Source: an uncultured Pseudorhodoferax sp. (GTDB lineage Bacteria; Pseudomonadota; Gammaproteobacteria; Burkholderiales; Burkholderiaceae). Taken from it: DNA of 7,300 nt. Location of the stretch: contig CAJYRH010000359.1 of the NCBI GenBank assembly GCA_913776795.1, positions 1 to 7,300 on the forward strand. The letters run 5' to 3'. Of this stretch, positions 2,495 through 7,300 are shown piece by piece. A model generated the notes under the pieces. That model searched no databases. It was given only the letters and a program-made list of their open reading frames with translations, and was not told where the DNA came from. The translations under genes were made by a program, and so were the position numbers. Each line of letters opens with the position of its first letter. Positions within the stretch are counted from its first letter, which is position 1.

Positions 2495-3409
2495 ATGGAC
2501 AAAGAAGTCGCACCCGCCGTCCTGACGGTCATCAACGAAAAGCGCCTGTCGGGCGACAAGCGCACGCCGGTCGAGATCATCACCAAGATGGGCGTGTTCG
2601 ACGCGCGCGACAAGGCCTCCGACATGGCCTGGCTGGCCAGCGGCGACAACATCATCGTGACCATCTGGGCCGAGCTCGTCAGCGTTGGCGAAGGGGGCCG
2701 CTGGTTCCTGCTGGAATCGCTGGACCCGTTGCACCGCATCGGCGGGGGCGAGCGCACCGAACTGCGCATCCAGCGCACCAAGGACCGCATCGGCCTGATC
2801 AAGCGCGCGTTCGACGCCGGGCAGGGCCTGCGCGCCGTGCTGCAGACCAACCGCGTGGCCATCGCCGACCTGGAGACCGACAAGGCCGCGCGCATGTCGG
2901 TGCGCGTGCCCGACGAGCAGGAATGGCACGTGGCCGTCTGGAGTCCCGAGCAGCGCCACGTGGTGCTGGTGCGCGGCCAGCGCGGCTGGGTGCCGGGCGA
3001 GGCCGAGATCCAGGCGGCCCGCGCGCGCGCCGGCATCGCCGAGGCCGCGCCGGATGCGCCGGCCATCGCGGTCGGCGGCGGCGACCTGCGCAGTGCAGCG
3101 CTGGACCACCTGACGCGCCACTTCGCCGGTTATGGCTACAAGACCGAGGCCCCGGACACCCCCAACCCGGGCTACGAGGTGGAGGTGCGCGACAAGAAGG
3201 GCAAGACGCTGCTCAAGCTGGTCGTGAAGGGCACGGCCACGGGCGCGGCCGGCTATGCGCTGACGTCCGGGCAGCGCGCCTTCGCGCGGCGCGATCCGCA
3301 GTGGCGCCTGGCCGTGGTGTCCGACGCGGGCAGCCCCGCTGCGCAGCACAAGCTGTACAACGGGGCCGACATGGACAAGGCGCCGGGCCTGGCGCCCGAA
3401 CTGGGCTGA
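2495..3409 (+). CDS. Hypothetical protein with degenerate DUF3883-like C-terminal domain
   Basis: This 304-residue cytoplasmic protein has no signal or membrane segment. Residues 1-170 form an uncharacterised region rich in beta-type segments (for example NIIVTIWAELV and HVAVWSPEQRHVVLVRGQRGWVP), followed by an Ala/Pro linker at about 174-195. Residues about 197-295 resemble DUF3883, a PD-(D/E)XK nuclease-like domain found in defence and restriction proteins: a helix ALDHLTRHFAGYGY, then NPGYEVEVRD (224-233), LLKLVVKGT (239-247) and YALTSGQRAFARRDPQWRLAVV (254-275, given here as landmarks). The family typically has NPGYD and an E-x-K motif. Here the Asp is Glu228 and the Glu before Lys245 is Val243, so nuclease activity is doubtful. 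The start at 2495 has no visible ribosome site and sits right after a terminator hairpin; ATG 2588 is an alternative. The assignment is by recalled motif resemblance, not a search. Confidence 0.82.
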   Translation: MDKEVAPAVLTVINEKRLSGDKRTPVEIITKMGVFDARDKASDMAWLASGDNIIVTIWAELVSVGEGGRWFLLESLDPLHRIGGGERTELRIQRTKDRIGLIKRAFDAGQGLRAVLQTNRVAIADLETDKAARMSVRVPDEQEWHVAVWSPEQRHVVLVRGQRGWVPGEAEIQAARARAGIAEAAPDAPAIAVGGGDLRSAALDHLTRHFAGYGYKTEAPDTPNPGYEVEVRDKKGKTLLKLVVKGTATGAAGYALTSGQRAFARRDPQWRLAVVSDAGSPAAQHKLYNGADMDKAPGLAPELG

Positions 3410-3428: not shown

Positions 3429-4898
3429 TCAGGCCATCTTGCCCGACAGGTCCCACATGGCATCGACCAGCGCGTCGATGTCGTTCGCGTCGTGCCACAG
3501 GTGTGTGGAGATGCGCATCGCGTAGTGGTTCGACGCGGCCCCGATCACCGGGAAGCTGGCGTTGCGGATGATCAGGCCCTGCGGGTACTCGGCCTGCAGG
3601 CGCGCCACGAACTGGTTGGCCTTGGTCGCATTCGTCACGTCGGCCCTGTTGCGGAACACGTTGAACGAGGTCAGTGCGCACACCAGCTTGGGGTCGTCCT
3701 TGGGCGAATACAGCGAATCCACGCCCCAGCGCTCGACGATCTTCTCCTTGAGGTAGGCCGACAGCGTGAGGTCGTAGGTCTCGATGTTCTTGCGGCCGAT
3801 CTGGTCCCACAGCTGGCAGGCGCTGGTCAGGGCCTGGAACAGCGGCGTGTGCGTGCTGCCGCAGCTGGTCACGCTGGCGGCGATGTCGTAGGTCGCCGTG
3901 CCGTTGGTGGTGCGCTCGCGCGTGGAATAGGTGCTCGTGTGGATCGGGTACCACTTGGGCAGCGGCAGCGGGTTGGAGGCGCGGATCTTGTTGCGGATGA
4001 CCAGGATGCCGGTGGAGCCCGGGCCGCACTGCCACTTGTGGCCGGCGCCGGACATGAAGTCCATGCCCAGTGCGCCGTAGTCGTAGTGCATCATCCCCGG
4101 CAGGTGGGCGCCGTCGACGATGCTGATGAGCTCGTGCTGCTTGACCACCTGCATGATCTCGGCGATGGGCAGGAGGGTGCCCGTCACATAGGTCGGCGAG
4201 GACCACATCACCGCGCGCACGCGCTTGCCGGCCGCCTTGAGCGTGCGAATGCGCTCGTCGAACAGGTTCTGGTAAGTGGCTGCGGTCTGGTTGTTGCCGA
4301 CGGGCAGCTCGATGCGGGAAATCTCGATGCCGTAGCGGTCCTGTGCGATCGCCAGCGGCACGTTGCCGCCCGGGTGCTCGTGGTTGGTCGTCACGACCAC
4401 GTCGCCGGCCTGCCAGGGGATGCCCAGGATCGCGTGGCACATGCCCGAAGAGGTGTTGGCCGAGAAGGCCAGCTCGTCCGTGTCCACGCCGAAGGCCGGC
4501 GCCACCAGGGCGCGCAGCGCGTTGTGGTCGGTGTAGCCGCTGCCCGATTCGCGGGCCTTCTTGCGGTTTTCGGTGTCGAACAGGTCCAGTGCCACCTTGG
4601 GCATGGAGCCGGCCGTACCGATGTTCATGAAGGTCTTGGTCGGGTCCAGCGTGAACATGTTCTGCACGTCGGTCCAGAAAGCCTCGTTGGCCACCAGTTG
4701 GGCACGCAGGTCGGCCGCGGGCGTGGCCGAGTTGCTGCTGCCGCAGGCCATGAGCGCCGGGCCCAGCGCGGCGGCGCCAGCGCCGTAGCCCAGCATGCGC
4801 AGGAAATCGCGGCGCTTGGACGGCCAGCGCGTCGTGTCGGATGCAGCCAGTGCGTTCAGGTCCGGCGTGTGGACGGTGGCGATCTGTGGGTCTTGCAT
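3429..4898 (-). CDS. Exported PLP-dependent class V aminotransferase-like lipoprotein (isopenicillin N epimerase / PvdN-like)
   Basis: This 489-residue fold-type I PLP enzyme is of the class V aminotransferase group. The N-terminus carries a twin-arginine signal: SKRRDFLRM (27-35), a hydrophobic stretch, then LMAC with Cys52. It should therefore be folded with cofactor in the cytoplasm, exported by Tat and lipid-anchored. Gly at +2 suggests the outer membrane. PLP landmarks are intact: ANTSSG (147-152), NHEHPGG (172-178), Asp262 in VDGAH for the pyridine nitrogen, and the Schiff-base Lys288 in GAGHKWQCGPG. The nearest characterised relative I know is PvdN, a Tat-exported enzyme that modifies the pyoverdine glutamate in fluorescent pseudomonads; nothing here suggests pyoverdine. 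The actual substrate and reaction (transamination, epimerisation, decarboxylation or desulphuration) are unknown. AGGAG at 4907-4911, eight bases from the ATG, fixes the start. The gene lies 22 bases after the RidA-family gene, in the same operon, and ends 19 bases from the convergent gene. Confidence 0.93.
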   Translation of the reverse strand: MQDPQIATVHTPDLNALAASDTTRWPSKRRDFLRMLGYGAGAAALGPALMACGSSNSATPAADLRAQLVANEAFWTDVQNMFTLDPTKTFMNIGTAGSMPKVALDLFDTENRKKARESGSGYTDHNALRALVAPAFGVDTDELAFSANTSSGMCHAILGIPWQAGDVVVTTNHEHPGGNVPLAIAQDRYGIEISRIELPVGNNQTAATYQNLFDERIRTLKAAGKRVRAVMWSSPTYVTGTLLPIAEIMQVVKQHELISIVDGAHLPGMMHYDYGALGMDFMSGAGHKWQCGPGSTGILVIRNKIRASNPLPLPKWYPIHTSTYSTRERTTNGTATYDIAASVTSCGSTHTPLFQALTSACQLWDQIGRKNIETYDLTLSAYLKEKIVERWGVDSLYSPKDDPKLVCALTSFNVFRNRADVTNATKANQFVARLQAEYPQGLIIRNASFPVIGAASNHYAMRISTHLWHDANDIDALVDAMWDLSGKMA

Positions 4899-4920
4899 GG
4901 TGTGTGCTCCTGGTTGCGGT

Positions 4921-5394
4921 TCAGCGGCGGCCGGCGATGACGGCGATCTCGACCTTCACGTCGCGCGGCAGGCGTGCGACTTCGACGGTGGCGCGCACCG
5001 GCGCGTTGCCGGGCTTGAAGTACTCGCCATAGACCTTGTTCATGGCGGCGAACTCGTTGAGGTCCTTCATGAACACCGAGGACGAGAGCACGTCGCCATA
5101 GTCCAGTCCCTGCGACTTGAGCATGGTGCCGATGTAGCGCAGCACGGCGTGCGTCTGGTCCTCGATGCTGGTGCCGACGACGGCGTTGCCGGCCTCGTTG
5201 AGCGGGATCACGCCCGAGAGGTACAGCGTGTTGCCGTGCGCCACCATCTGCGAGTACGGACCGATGGCGGGCGGCACGCCGGTGGTCGACAGGACTGTGC
5301 GTTGGACCGGCACGGCGCAGGCCGTCATGAGCAGCGCTGCGGCGCAGCCAGCCAGCACCCTGGTGAAGCGGCCGGCACGGATGTTGTGGGGCAT
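4921..5394 (-). CDS. RidA-family protein with lipoprotein signal peptide
   Basis: RidA (YjgF/YER057c/UK114) proteins hydrolyse reactive enamine and imine intermediates released by PLP enzymes, giving a keto acid and ammonia. They are normally cytoplasmic trimers of about 128 residues. This 157-residue copy has a prepeptide: basic n-region (Arg6, Arg9, Arg12), hydrophobic core VLAGCAAALLMTA and Cys26 as a likely lipidation site. The mature domain of about 131 residues is of family length. Conserved motifs are present: PPAIGPYSQ (41-49), LYLSGVIPL, and RATVEVARLPRDVKVEIAVIA. Arg134 and Glu149 keep the 15-residue spacing of the catalytic Arg105/Glu120 of E. coli RidA. The lipobox has Met at -3, which is unusual, so an uncleaved or SPase I signal is possible. 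The start is supported by AGGAAGGAAGG at 5402-5412. It is the first gene of an operon with the exported PLP enzyme, which suggests it handles that enzyme's intermediates in the periplasm. Confidence 0.93.
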   Translation of the reverse strand: MPHNIRAGRFTRVLAGCAAALLMTACAVPVQRTVLSTTGVPPAIGPYSQMVAHGNTLYLSGVIPLNEAGNAVVGTSIEDQTHAVLRYIGTMLKSQGLDYGDVLSSSVFMKDLNEFAAMNKVYGEYFKPGNAPVRATVEVARLPRDVKVEIAVIAGRR

Positions 5395-5546: not shown

Positions 5547-5559
5547 GGTTTCATTTCCC

Positions 5560-5570
5560 CTACGTGGTAG
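5560..5570. promoter_or_regulatory. Small palindrome CTAC-GTG-GTAG, possible regulator half-site pair
   Basis: CTAC and GTAG form perfect four-base arms around GTG, followed directly by TACG. Short TAC/GTA dyads of this kind are compatible with NarL/FixJ-type response regulators, the usual partners of HisKA_3 kinases such as the one encoded to the right. The element is short enough to occur by chance, and only its position just upstream of the left-going promoter makes it worth listing. Confidence 0.2.
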
Positions 5571-5610
5571 TACGCAGCGGCCACTTCCAGCCACCCGGCT
5601 CGCTGCGCCG

Positions 5611-5737: not shown

Positions 5738-7300
5738 ATGCAGTTGCGCCTCAAGCTGGTGCTGTTGTCGGGCGTGCCCATCGTGGTCGCGCTGCTGCTC
5801 ATGGGGGCCACCATGCAGCAGCAGACCTACAAGCTGGTGCGCGAGGAGCAGGCCCTCGTGCAGCAGGCCTTCATGCAGAGCAAGCAGGCCGAGCTCAAGC
5901 ACTACGTGGAGCTGGCGCGCAACACGCTGGCGCGCATCGCCGAAGGGCCGGGCGAGGTCGGCGTGCGCAAGGAGCAGGCGCTGGCCACGCTGGCGCGCAT
6001 GCAGTTCGGCGACAACGGCTACTTCTTCGTCTACGACCAGCACGGCCAGCTGCTGATCGACCCCAAGACGCTGCCCATGCAGGGCGTTGACTTCTGCGAT
6101 CCCAACGACCCGGCCAGCGCAGATTCGGCCCAGCGCATCCTGGCCGCGGCGCGGCGCGGCGGCGGCGTCGTGCATTACAGCTGGAGCAAGCCCAGCTCGC
6201 AGTCCGTCGTGCCCAAGATGGCCTACGTGCTTACGGTGCCGGGTTGGAACTGGGTCATCGGAACCGGCATCTACCTGGACGACGTGCAGGGCGCGCTGCA
6301 GGCGATCGAGCAGGGCGCGCGGGCCAACATCGAGGCCACGCGCCAGCGGGTCTATGCCATCGCCGCCGTCTGCGTGGTGCTGATCGGCCTGGGCGGCATG
6401 GTGCTGAACCTCAAGGACCACCGCGTCTCCAGCGACAAGCTGCGCCGGCTGGCGCGCCGCGTGGTGCGCTCGCAGGAAGACGAGCGCGTGCGCGTGGCGC
6501 GCGAACTGCACGACGGCGTGGTCCAGGTGCTGGCCTCGTCCAAGTTTCTGCTCGAGACCGCGCAGCTGCAGCTGGCCGATCCGGCCGCCGGCATGGGTGC
6601 CGGGCCGCGCCAGGCGCTCGACCAGGGGTTGGAACGGCTGGGCAGCGCGCTGGTGGAGATCCGGCGCGTCTCGCACGGCCTGCGCCCCGCCCTGCTCGAC
6701 GACCTGGGCCTGGCGCCTGCGCTGCAACTGCTGGCGCAGCAGGTGCAGGAGGGTGGCGCCTTCCCGGTCGGCCTGGTGTGCCAGGGCGCGCCCGCAACGC
6801 TGCCGGCAGAGCACGCTACGGTGCTGTTCCGCATCGCCCAGGAAGCGCTGCAGAACTGCCGCACGCACGCCCACGCCGCCCGTGTCGAACTCGTGCTGCA
6901 CGGCACGCGCCGCGGCGTCGGCCTGCAGGTCATCGACGACGGCCAGGGCTTCGACATGCGCAGCGTGTCCGGCGATGGCACGCGCGGCATCGGCCTGCGC
7001 AACATGCGCGAGCGGGCCGAGAGCCTGGGCGGCACGCTCAGCGTCGAATCGGGCCGCCATGGCACGCGCATCGCGGCCTGGCTGCCGCTGCCGCCGGGTA
7101 TCGCCGAGGCGGCGCCGGCTGCGCCGATCGCCCCGGTCCCACCCATCCACCTCGCCCATCCCGCCCCAAGTCCCCCCCCCCCCCCCCCCACCCCCGGTGC
7201 CCTTGCACCCCAGCAACGAGAAATCTTGAAGGCGATTACGGTCAATGAAACAGCTCGACCAGGTGAGGCTTTGTATGACTTTCGCTGTGTTCGTATCGCG
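5738..7300 (+). CDS. Membrane sensor histidine kinase with Cache sensor domain (3' end beyond window)
   Basis: The frame runs from ATG 5738 to the window edge without a stop (521 codons). Order: transmembrane segment 1 at about 8-26; periplasmic Cache domain at about 27-195, with FGDNGYFFVYDQHGQLLIDP (90-109) and PGWNWVIGTGIYLDDV; transmembrane segment 2 at about 205-223; HisKA_3 dimerisation domain with EDERVRVARELHD, phospho-acceptor His258; then HATPase_c with N-box QEALQNCRTHAHA (Asn373), DDGQGFD (400-406) and GIGLRNMRERAESLGG (417-432). Cache domains bind small organic acids or amino acids; the ligand here is unknown. Such kinases usually phosphorylate a LuxR-type response regulator, expected downstream but not seen. 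GGGG at 5727-5730 or GGAG at 5722-5725 may serve as the ribosome site. The kinase core ends near residue 453. After it comes a Pro/Ala tail crossing a poly-C tract, and the residues from about 485 on are unreliable. Confidence 0.92.
   Translation, partial: MQLRLKLVLLSGVPIVVALLLMGATMQQQTYKLVREEQALVQQAFMQSKQAELKHYVELARNTLARIAEGPGEVGVRKEQALATLARMQFGDNGYFFVYDQHGQLLIDPKTLPMQGVDFCDPNDPASADSAQRILAAARRGGGVVHYSWSKPSSQSVVPKMAYVLTVPGWNWVIGTGIYLDDVQGALQAIEQGARANIEATRQRVYAIAAVCVVLIGLGGMVLNLKDHRVSSDKLRRLARRVVRSQEDERVRVARELHDGVVQVLASSKFLLETAQLQLADPAAGMGAGPRQALDQGLERLGSALVEIRRVSHGLRPALLDDLGLAPALQLLAQQVQEGGAFPVGLVCQGAPATLPAEHATVLFRIAQEALQNCRTHAHAARVELVLHGTRRGVGLQVIDDGQGFDMRSVSGDGTRGIGLRNMRERAESLGGTLSVESGRHGTRIAAWLPLPPGIAEAAPAAPIAPVPPIHLAHPAPSPPPPPPTPGALAPQQREILKAITVNETARPGEALYDFRCVRIA
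7172..7189 (+). repeat. Homopolymeric tract of 18 C (then A and five more C)
   Basis: Eighteen consecutive C residues encode six prolines in the tail of the kinase frame. Tract length sets the downstream frame. With 18 C the frame runs past the window. With 17 C it would stop at the TGA at 7227-7229 (tail ending SNEKS). With 19 C it would stop at the TGA at 7246-7248 (tail ending LEGDYGQ). Such tracts slip during replication and are also frequent sequencing and assembly errors. Base composition changes just after the tract, so an artefact or false join must be considered. Confidence 0.9.
7245..7300 (+). CDS. Possible start of a downstream gene (18 codons visible)
   Basis: ATG at 7245 opens a frame, different from the kinase frame, that stays open to the edge and begins MKQLDQVRLC. 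Its ATG overlaps the TGA at 7246-7248 as ATGA, which would be the natural end of the kinase if the poly-C tract had 19 residues. That is the usual coupled arrangement of operon genes. The visible residues do not look like the start of a response regulator, and the local GC is lower than in the rest of the window. The call rests only on the ATGA overlap and a GAAGG at 7228-7232. Confidence 0.15.
   Translation, partial: MKQLDQVRLCMTFAVFVS

What the first reader, a model, noticed from the sequence alone, without database searches (positions are those of the whole stretch)
3429..5394. Exported PLP enzyme paired with an exported RidA-type deaminase
RidA proteins normally work in the cytoplasm, removing reactive enamines and imines made by PLP enzymes. 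Here a RidA homologue with intact Arg134/Glu149 and a PLP enzyme with intact Lys288/Asp262 are in one operon, 22 bases apart. Both have N-terminal signals ending in a candidate lipidation Cys. This suggests an envelope-located pathway in which the PLP enzyme makes an unstable intermediate and its partner hydrolyses it. The nearest known case, PvdN in pyoverdine maturation, is Tat-exported but I know of no RidA partner for it.
Basis: partly seen in the sequence, partly recalled or inferred. Interest (0 to 1): 0.72.

Follow-up and report, generated by a model that had tools for sequence, protein, structure and literature searches.

The report
Exported RidA paired with exported PLP enzyme
Some soil and water bacteria appear to export a vitamin-B6 enzyme together with a clean-up enzyme normally known from inside the cell, beside a sensor system of their own, which points to an undescribed amino-acid-processing step outside the cytoplasm.

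Summary
Window 4921-5394(-) encodes an archetypal RidA with a lipoprotein signal. 22 bases downstream, 3429-4898(-) encodes an Aminotran_5 PLP enzyme with a Tat signal and lipobox.

Pairing and export are conserved: RidA is adjacent in 21 of 21 genome loci and in seven distant pairs (29-47% PLP identity). By motif, 40 of 40 pairs have a Tat signal and 39 of 40 a RidA signal. Lipoboxes vary. RidAs of 39 of 40 pairs branch apart from cytoplasmic paralogues.

A MctS/MctR-like two-component system flanks 32 of 33 close pairs. A TRCGTA-N4-TRCGTA-R-GGGAAA site precedes the pair in 33 of 33 loci with the kinase; in eight genomes it hits 8 times, 7 at the pair. The kinase keeps the carboxylate contacts of pyruvate sensors but has Asp, Asn or Glu for the pyruvate-contacting His in 33 of 33, so it may sense an amino acid.

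Best reading: an inducible envelope pathway in which the PLP enzyme releases an enamine/imine and RidA hydrolyses it; this chemistry is inferred. Exported PLP enzymes are known (PvdN, PtaA); my searches found no exported RidA in print.

The parts
4921..5394 (-). Exported RidA (Rid family imine/enamine deaminase, archetypal subfamily), lipoprotein signal peptide residues 1-25, Cys26
   Evidence: same signal type in relatives
3429..4898 (-). Tat-exported, probably lipid-anchored fold-type-I PLP enzyme (Aminotran_5); RR29/30, Cys52, PLP residues His175, Asp262, His265, Lys288, carboxylate Arg462 (roles of His175, His265, Arg462 recalled)
5554..5576 (-). Conserved promoter site TGCGTA-CTAC-CACGTA-G-GGGAAA (imperfect direct repeat, 10-base period), candidate response-regulator site; 159 bases before the RidA start
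   Evidence: genome counts in relatives
5738..7300 (+). Divergent sensor histidine kinase (sCache_2 + HisKA_3 + HATPase_c, MctS-like), open at the window end; the response regulator that follows it in relatives lies beyond the window

Best explanation
A substrate-inducible amino-acid-processing module of the cell envelope. Step 1: the sCache_2 kinase senses a small carboxylate, most likely an amino acid, in the periplasm (inferred from pocket residues). Step 2: its MctR-like regulator binds TRCGTA-N4-TRCGTA-R-GGGAAA and turns on the pair (inferred from co-occurrence and position). Step 3: the PLP enzyme folds around PLP in the cytoplasm, is exported by Tat and is usually lipid-anchored; RidA is exported by Sec (signals shown by motif, export not measured). 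Step 4: the PLP enzyme takes an alpha-amino acid and releases an enamine or imine, most likely 2-aminoacrylate by alpha,beta-elimination (inferred from the RidA partner and from C-S lyases being the nearest solved relatives). Step 5: exported RidA hydrolyses it to a 2-oxo acid and ammonia, sparing the PLP enzyme and the envelope (inferred from RidA biochemistry).
For: Adjacent RidA in 21 of 21 genome loci and in 12 of 12 further close loci; in 7 distant pairs at 29-47% PLP identity (tblastn), one alphaproteobacterial. Export motifs on both partners in 39 of 40 pairs by script, 40 of 40 with L039 by eye. The pair is kept although gene order is swapped and RidA lineages interleave on the PLP tree. 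Catalytic residues invariant. MctS/MctR-like system in 32 of 33 close loci. DNA site (4 mismatches or fewer) in 33 of 33 loci with the kinase, window included, and in 0 of 7 scanned pairs without it; 8 hits in 8 genomes, 7 at the pair, reversed control 0. Kinase pocket YF-[DNE]-YWK: D, N or E in 33 of 33 distinct kinases (my de-duplication), against His in 4 of 4 fetched kinases next to mctP or cstA. Nearest solved enzymes: cystine C-S lyase, Egt2.
Against: No activity, localisation or ligand data. The kinase is absent from six deeper pairs of the same family sample, one close pair (L043) and the Palleronia record, so its input cannot define the core function. PLP relatives outside the clade do without RidA, several of them with Tat signals, so RidA is not obligatory for the family's chemistry. 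Asp/Asn/Glu at the His position argues against the simplest product-sensing version (pyruvate) and could also fit other small acids. Kinase and regulator reach only about half to two thirds of the MctS/MctR cut-offs. The structure model was poor (mean pLDDT 64.6), so there is no active-site comparison. One site hit lies away from the pair (G006) and the pair of G008 is missed by the strict pattern.
Confidence: 0.5

Rival explanations
1. The PLP enzyme is a transaminase or racemase (JGI names some relatives 'isopenicillin-N epimerase') working on a periplasmic amino acid; RidA only mops up accidental imines and protects the enzyme, which cannot renew PLP outside the cytoplasm.
For: Racemases and transaminases of this fold exist (recalled); PtaA is a Tat-exported periplasmic transaminase (PMC6206403, passages). 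Relatives without RidA exist.
Against: A mere mop-up role does not easily explain why RidA stays adjacent in 40 of 41 tips of the paired clade (with L048 relabelled), including after the RidA lineage changed.
Confidence: 0.22
2. Like PvdN or PtaA, the enzyme tailors an exported metabolite or peptide (a siderophore residue), and RidA hydrolyses the imine formed on it.
For: Distant PvdN similarity (79 bits); PvdN and PtaA act on pyoverdine in the periplasm (passages).
Against: By eye, no recurrent biosynthetic neighbour in the gene lists; the recurrent neighbours are the kinase and regulator.
Confidence: 0.15
3. The exported RidA has no deaminase role and serves as a periplasmic chaperone or binding protein.
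For: Other roles of Rid proteins are in print, for instance an RNase role of YabJ (PMC6435465, listing only); a chaperone role is recalled.
Against: Arg134/Glu149 invariant; tight link to a PLP enzyme.
Confidence: 0.06
4. Chance or passive synteny of two unrelated exported genes.
For: Many loci come from related genera.
Against: Control 2 of 46 against 8 of 8; order swapped; distant pairs in other flanks.
Confidence: 0.02

Closest known systems
PvdN and PtaA of fluorescent pseudomonads (Tat-exported PLP enzymes)
   Same: PLP enzymes carried folded through Tat (passages); PvdN is a sequence relative
   Different: 79 of 650 bits to the PvdN equivalog; no RidA beside the two PvdN-like genes checked, neither of which reaches the PvdN cut-off; pyoverdine side chains are their substrate
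RidA/YjgF/UK114 (Rid) family, archetypal RidA subfamily
   Same: Domain, catalytic Arg and Glu, TIGR00004 above cut-off
   Different: Signal peptide; branches apart from the 32 other RidA rows of the tree
C-DES cystine C-S lyase and Egt2/EgtE C-S lyases
   Same: Best solved sequence relatives in the profile search, PLP region aligned
   Different: About 90 bits or less over part of the chain; no exported RidA partner (recalled); reaction not shown here
MctS/MctR of Rhizobium (controls the pyruvate/lactate/alanine carrier MctP) and its cstA-linked kin
   Same: Best NCBIfam models of kinase and regulator; most carboxylate pocket residues
   Different: 374.7 of 700 and 195.3 of 300 bits; His replaced by Asp/Asn/Glu; beside enzyme genes, not a transporter

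Membership tests
Rid family, RidA subfamily | PF01042/TIGR00004 above cut-off | tested here: met
   120.6 (cut-off 27.3) and 128.4 (cut-off 106.25) bits
Rid family, RidA subfamily | Catalytic Arg and Glu | tested here: met
   R134 and E149 invariant in 23 rows; their role as Arg105/Glu120 of RidA is recalled
Rid family, RidA subfamily | Imine/enamine deaminase activity | not testable with these tools
   needs an assay
Rid family, RidA subfamily | Location inside the cell (usual, not defining) | tested here: inconclusive
   signal peptide by motif in 39 of 40 pairs, L039 by eye, which speaks for export; location itself not measured
Aminotransferase class V, fold-type-I PLP enzymes | PF00266 above cut-off with PLP Lys and Asp | tested here: met
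   90 bits (cut-off 21.5); K288 and D262 invariant
PvdN (NF051467) | Equivalog cut-off 650 bits | tested here: not met
   79 bits
SufS cysteine desulfurase | Model cut-off | tested here: not met
   70.9 of 475.1 bits; the catalytic Cys loop was not compared
Tat lipoprotein | RR motif, hydrophobic stretch, lipobox Cys | tested here: met
   RRDFLRM..LMAC; R29, R30, F32 and C52 invariant in 24 close rows; lipobox absent in 5 of 40 PLP partners (my reading)
MctS/MctR two-component system | Equivalog cut-offs 700 and 300 bits | tested here: not met
   374.7 and 195.3 bits for L001, best models; window kinase 374.8 bits to MctS
Pyruvate-binding sCache_2 | Y96, F98, H109, F148, W150, K161 (4EXO numbering, PMC12415202 passages) | tested here: not met
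   Y96, F98, W150, K161 kept, 148 is Tyr, H109 is D/N/E in all 33 distinct kinases

The most novel reading that the evidence does not exclude
An extracytoplasmic RidA pathway: a Tat-exported PLP beta-eliminating (or deaminating) enzyme and a Sec-exported RidA work as an obligate pair in the envelope, switched on by a dedicated two-component system whose sCache_2 pocket changed from pyruvate to an amino-acid ligand by replacing one His with Asp/Asn. Cells would then turn an external amino acid into 2-oxo acid and ammonia before uptake, and keep reactive 2-aminoacrylate out of the cytoplasm.
Probability: 0.4. Interest if true: 0.82.

Novelty: new variant of a known kind. Interest (0 to 1): 0.64.

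Why it matters
RidA is known as an intracellular guard against enamines, and the two Rid papers I searched for it do not mention export. A conserved exported RidA tied to one exported PLP enzyme says that reactive imines are probably also made in the envelope, and names the enzyme. The small module (four genes in most close relatives, one DNA site) makes substrate, ligand and regulation testable. The kinase offers a natural test of how one residue sets sCache_2 ligand choice.

Tried and rejected
Pyruvate as the sensed product was my first idea, because the kinase is MctS-like. It was weakened when the His that contacts pyruvate proved to be Asp/Asn/Glu.

Structure: one AlphaFold job on A1 gave mean pLDDT 64.6, too poor for a fold search, so none was run.

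Chance pairing was tested and disfavoured. Two independent recruitments of cytoplasmic RidA were considered. The tree puts the RidAs of 39 pairs and the window on one side of a branch (96/83), the Palleronia RidA outside on a long branch, so one exported lineage with later partner exchange fits better. Limits: 127 columns, and few archetypal cytoplasmic RidAs among the other rows.

Rows dropped: of 40 RidA paralogue regions fetched 30 passed my profile search at E 1e-8 and entered the tree; 10 did not. Seven near-identical PLP rows were left out of the PLP tree. Protein searches listed 120 of 504 and 120 of 2377 hits.

PvdN comparison: 2 of 185 genomes had PvdN-like matches at E 1e-60, none over the cut-off. 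Kinase kin on plasmid records: 203 records matched, 25 listed, 4 fetched. A DNA search of the window's pair on plasmids gave 13 records, none covering 80%. The window's last 106 bases had no match in phages or plasmids.

Full report
OBSERVATION. RidA scores 120.6 bits to PF01042 and 128.4 to TIGR00004, over its cut-off. The PLP enzyme scores 90 bits to PF00266; PvdN is its best NCBIfam model but far below the cut-off (79 of 650). The nearest loci found are Pseudorhodoferax and one Variovorax: 91-93% PLP identity with L001-L005.

CONSERVATION OF THE PAIR. A protein-pattern scan of the genome collection gave 21 loci (Pseudorhodoferax, Variovorax, Delftia, Paracidovorax, Acidovorax, Cognatazoarcus, Cupriavidus, Verticiella). 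RidA is adjacent in 21 of 21: upstream of the PLP gene in 7 (as in the window) and downstream in 14. Whole-genome searches found PLP relatives in 7 of 399 genomes of the order (E 1e-60), 2 of 369 of the class and 23 of 299 of the family (E 1e-40), and 6 of 349 of the phylum (E 1e-25); G001 itself is counted in each, the samples overlap, and the gene is patchy. The 12 further distinct close orthologues all have RidA. More distant paired members are L044/55, L045/56, L046/57, L047/58, L048/59 and L050/60 (34-47% by tblastn) and the alphaproteobacterial Palleronia record L054 (29%), whose annotators called the neighbour a Rid family hydrolase.

UNPAIRED RELATIVES, told in full. L025-L028 (31-32%; no signal seen by eye), L049 (Tat signal), L029 (Tat signal), Streptomyces plasmid L052 (46%, Tat signal), Vibrio campbellii L053, L110-L112 (Tat signals) and PvdN-like L128 and L129 have no RidA within the DNA read. 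On the PLP tree the paired members fall in one clade (SH-aLRT 85); 40 of its 41 tips, window included, have RidA, the exception being the Streptomyces gene (L048 was mislabelled in that output and does have RidA). Some deep branches there are long and uncertain.

CONTROL. In eight whole genomes with the pair, 46 other Aminotran_5 matches (40 bits or more) were compared with 88 PF01042 matches: 2 of 46 lay within 2 kb, against 8 of 8 for the pair.

EXPORT. In 40 paired loci (L012 and L013 being near-identical) the PLP partner has the RR motif in 40. RidA has a hydrophobic signal in 39 by script; the fortieth, L039, has one by eye if an upstream start is used. Lipoboxes are not universal. RidA looks like signal peptidase I cleavage in six (L008, L009, L010, L021, L039, L054), and five PLP partners (L045-L047, L050, L054) have Tat signals without Cys. 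This is my reading, whose own tallies are 35 RidA and 33 PLP lipoboxes: its regular expression missed two real PLP lipoboxes (L012, L015) and flagged one false RidA lipobox (L039). Among the 120 RidA homologues listed, 117 have a lipobox-like site; among 120 PLP sequences (the window protein and 119 of the hits) 118 have the RR motif and 110 a lipobox by script. These are motif counts, not SignalP.

RIDA LINEAGES. On a tree with 32 other RidA rows (30 paralogues from the same genomes, two PDB chains), the RidAs of 39 pairs and the window lie on one side of a branch (96/83), Palleronia excepted. There are two types, about 43-54% identical. The types interleave on the PLP tree, so the RidA partner seems to have been exchanged at least twice while pairing was kept. 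With 127 RidA columns, and few archetypal cytoplasmic RidAs among the rows, this is suggestive only.

THE MISSED CONTROL CIRCUIT. Every one of the 21 loci also carries a sensor kinase and a LuxR-type regulator next to the pair. Over 33 close loci 32 have both; L043/L067 has neither. In the window the kinase is 5738-7300(+), divergent from RidA and cut by the window end. Its domains are sCache_2, HisKA_3 and HATPase_c. For L001 the best NCBIfam models are MctS (374.7 of 700 bits) and MctR (195.3 of 300). Each of eight genomes has 2-6 sCache_2 matches, one of them beside the pair in 8 of 8. In Rhizobium MctS/MctR controls MctP, a carrier of alanine, pyruvate and lactate (PMC9100948, abstract and passages; annotated neighbours in L138). 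Kin in two Paraburkholderia and one Pseudomonas record stand next to a cstA-family gene. The arrangement differs between lineages (divergent from RidA, divergent from PLP, or co-directional in Cupriavidus), so this is more than frozen synteny.

THE DNA SITE. Upstream of whichever gene comes first in the pair lies TRCGTA-N4-TRCGTA-R-GGGAAA. In the window it is 5554-5576, 159 bases from the RidA start. It is present (4 mismatches or fewer) in 33 of 33 loci with the kinase, window included. In the 7 pairs without the kinase that were scanned (L043/L067, L044/L055, L056-L060) the best match has 5-7 mismatches; L043 keeps what looks like a half-site. In eight genomes (about 47 Mb) a 21-base pattern with up to one mismatch hits 8 times: 7 at the pair, one elsewhere in G006, none in G008; the reversed pattern hits none. 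A similar repeat lies between cstA and the kinase of L140. The regulator is therefore inferred, not shown, to act almost only on this module.

WHAT THE KINASE MAY SENSE. Its Cache domain is related to solved sCache_2 domains, the best being 2qhk/4exo. 4EXO holds pyruvate, contacted by Y96, F98, H109, F148, W150 and K161; His at 109 goes with pyruvate and Leu with lactate (PMC12415202 passages; PscD in PMC5062169 passages). In 33 distinct kinases of the module all readable positions are Y, F, Y, W, K, but position 109 is D (20), N (12) or E (1), never H or L (44 rows, 42 readable there, duplicates removed by me). Tyr70, a further pyruvate contact in the Vibrio domain that PscD also lacks, is not kept either. 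The four fetched kinases beside mctP or cstA have H in 4 of 4, two of them from Paraburkholderia. So the pocket still fits a small carboxylate, but probably one with an amino group. This inference speaks against plain pyruvate sensing.

CHEMISTRY. Arg462 (RISTH stretch) and the PLP residues are invariant from Palleronia to the window, which fits an alpha-amino acid. The nearest solved enzymes in the profile search are the C-S lyases C-DES and Egt2, then PvdN; with the single sequence C-DES comes first and PvdN next. C-S lyases release 2-aminoacrylate and RidA hydrolyses it (established biochemistry, recalled). Hence alpha,beta-elimination is my first guess; transamination, racemisation or oxidative chemistry remain open.

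RELATIVES WITH OTHER PARTNERS. A periplasmic ligand system next to the enzyme is thus seen in two lineages.

NOVELTY. Tat-exported PLP enzymes are known: PvdN and PtaA (PMC6206403 passages). For an exported RidA I searched the held library with RidA+periplasm+signal peptide+pyridoxal, RidA+Rid family+periplasmic, RidA+2-aminoacrylate+signal peptide, isopenicillin N epimerase/RidA/Tat signal and YjgF+signal peptide+periplasm. Of the papers these listed I opened PMC9537276 (its RidA-family protein OngD is treated under cytoplasmic catabolism, passages) and PMC7688666 (passages; nothing on an exported Rid); six others I saw as listings only. The comparative-genomics paper on Rid (PMC4433059) has no 'signal peptide' or 'periplasm' in its held text, nor has PMC5619798. 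Subscription papers are not covered, so absence is not proven.

VERDICT. New variant of a known kind.

Noticed in passing
   Followed up: partly
L140:4652 (Pseudomonas mandelii plasmid), L139-L141: MctS-like kinases next to cstA-family genes; in L140 a TACGTA-N4-TACGTA repeat lies between them, like the site of this module.
   Followed up: partly
window 7172-7300: A run of C (7172-7189), then about 110 bases unlike the kinase end or regulator start of L001; the kinase frame stays open. Possibly a chimeric contig end; no match in phages or plasmids.
   Followed up: partly
G001:C1:818585-820652 and G007:C4:450207-452272: Another PF01042/Aminotran_5 neighbour pair in two Pseudorhodoferax genomes, the only other such pair within 2 kb in eight genomes at 40 bits or more.
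   Followed up: no
L062-L065: Relatives (31-32%) without signal peptide (by eye) or RidA; in three of the four the next gene begins with an IGVSANAM stretch (amidotransferase-looking, by eye).
   Followed up: no
L056:7254-7799 and L058:5477-6001: A small exported-looking protein follows the pair; in L056 it carries a PEP-CTERM motif.
   Followed up: partly
L067 and L055: Pairs without the kinase lie beside what look by eye like TRAP and branched-chain amino acid ABC transporter genes.
   Followed up: no
L008:1669-3158: The kinase of this metagenome-derived genome is split over two frames.
   Followed up: no
window 2495-3409 (+): 304-aa protein without Pfam or NCBIfam match at E 0.001; a similar frame is kept in five Pseudorhodoferax/Variovorax loci.
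   Followed up: no
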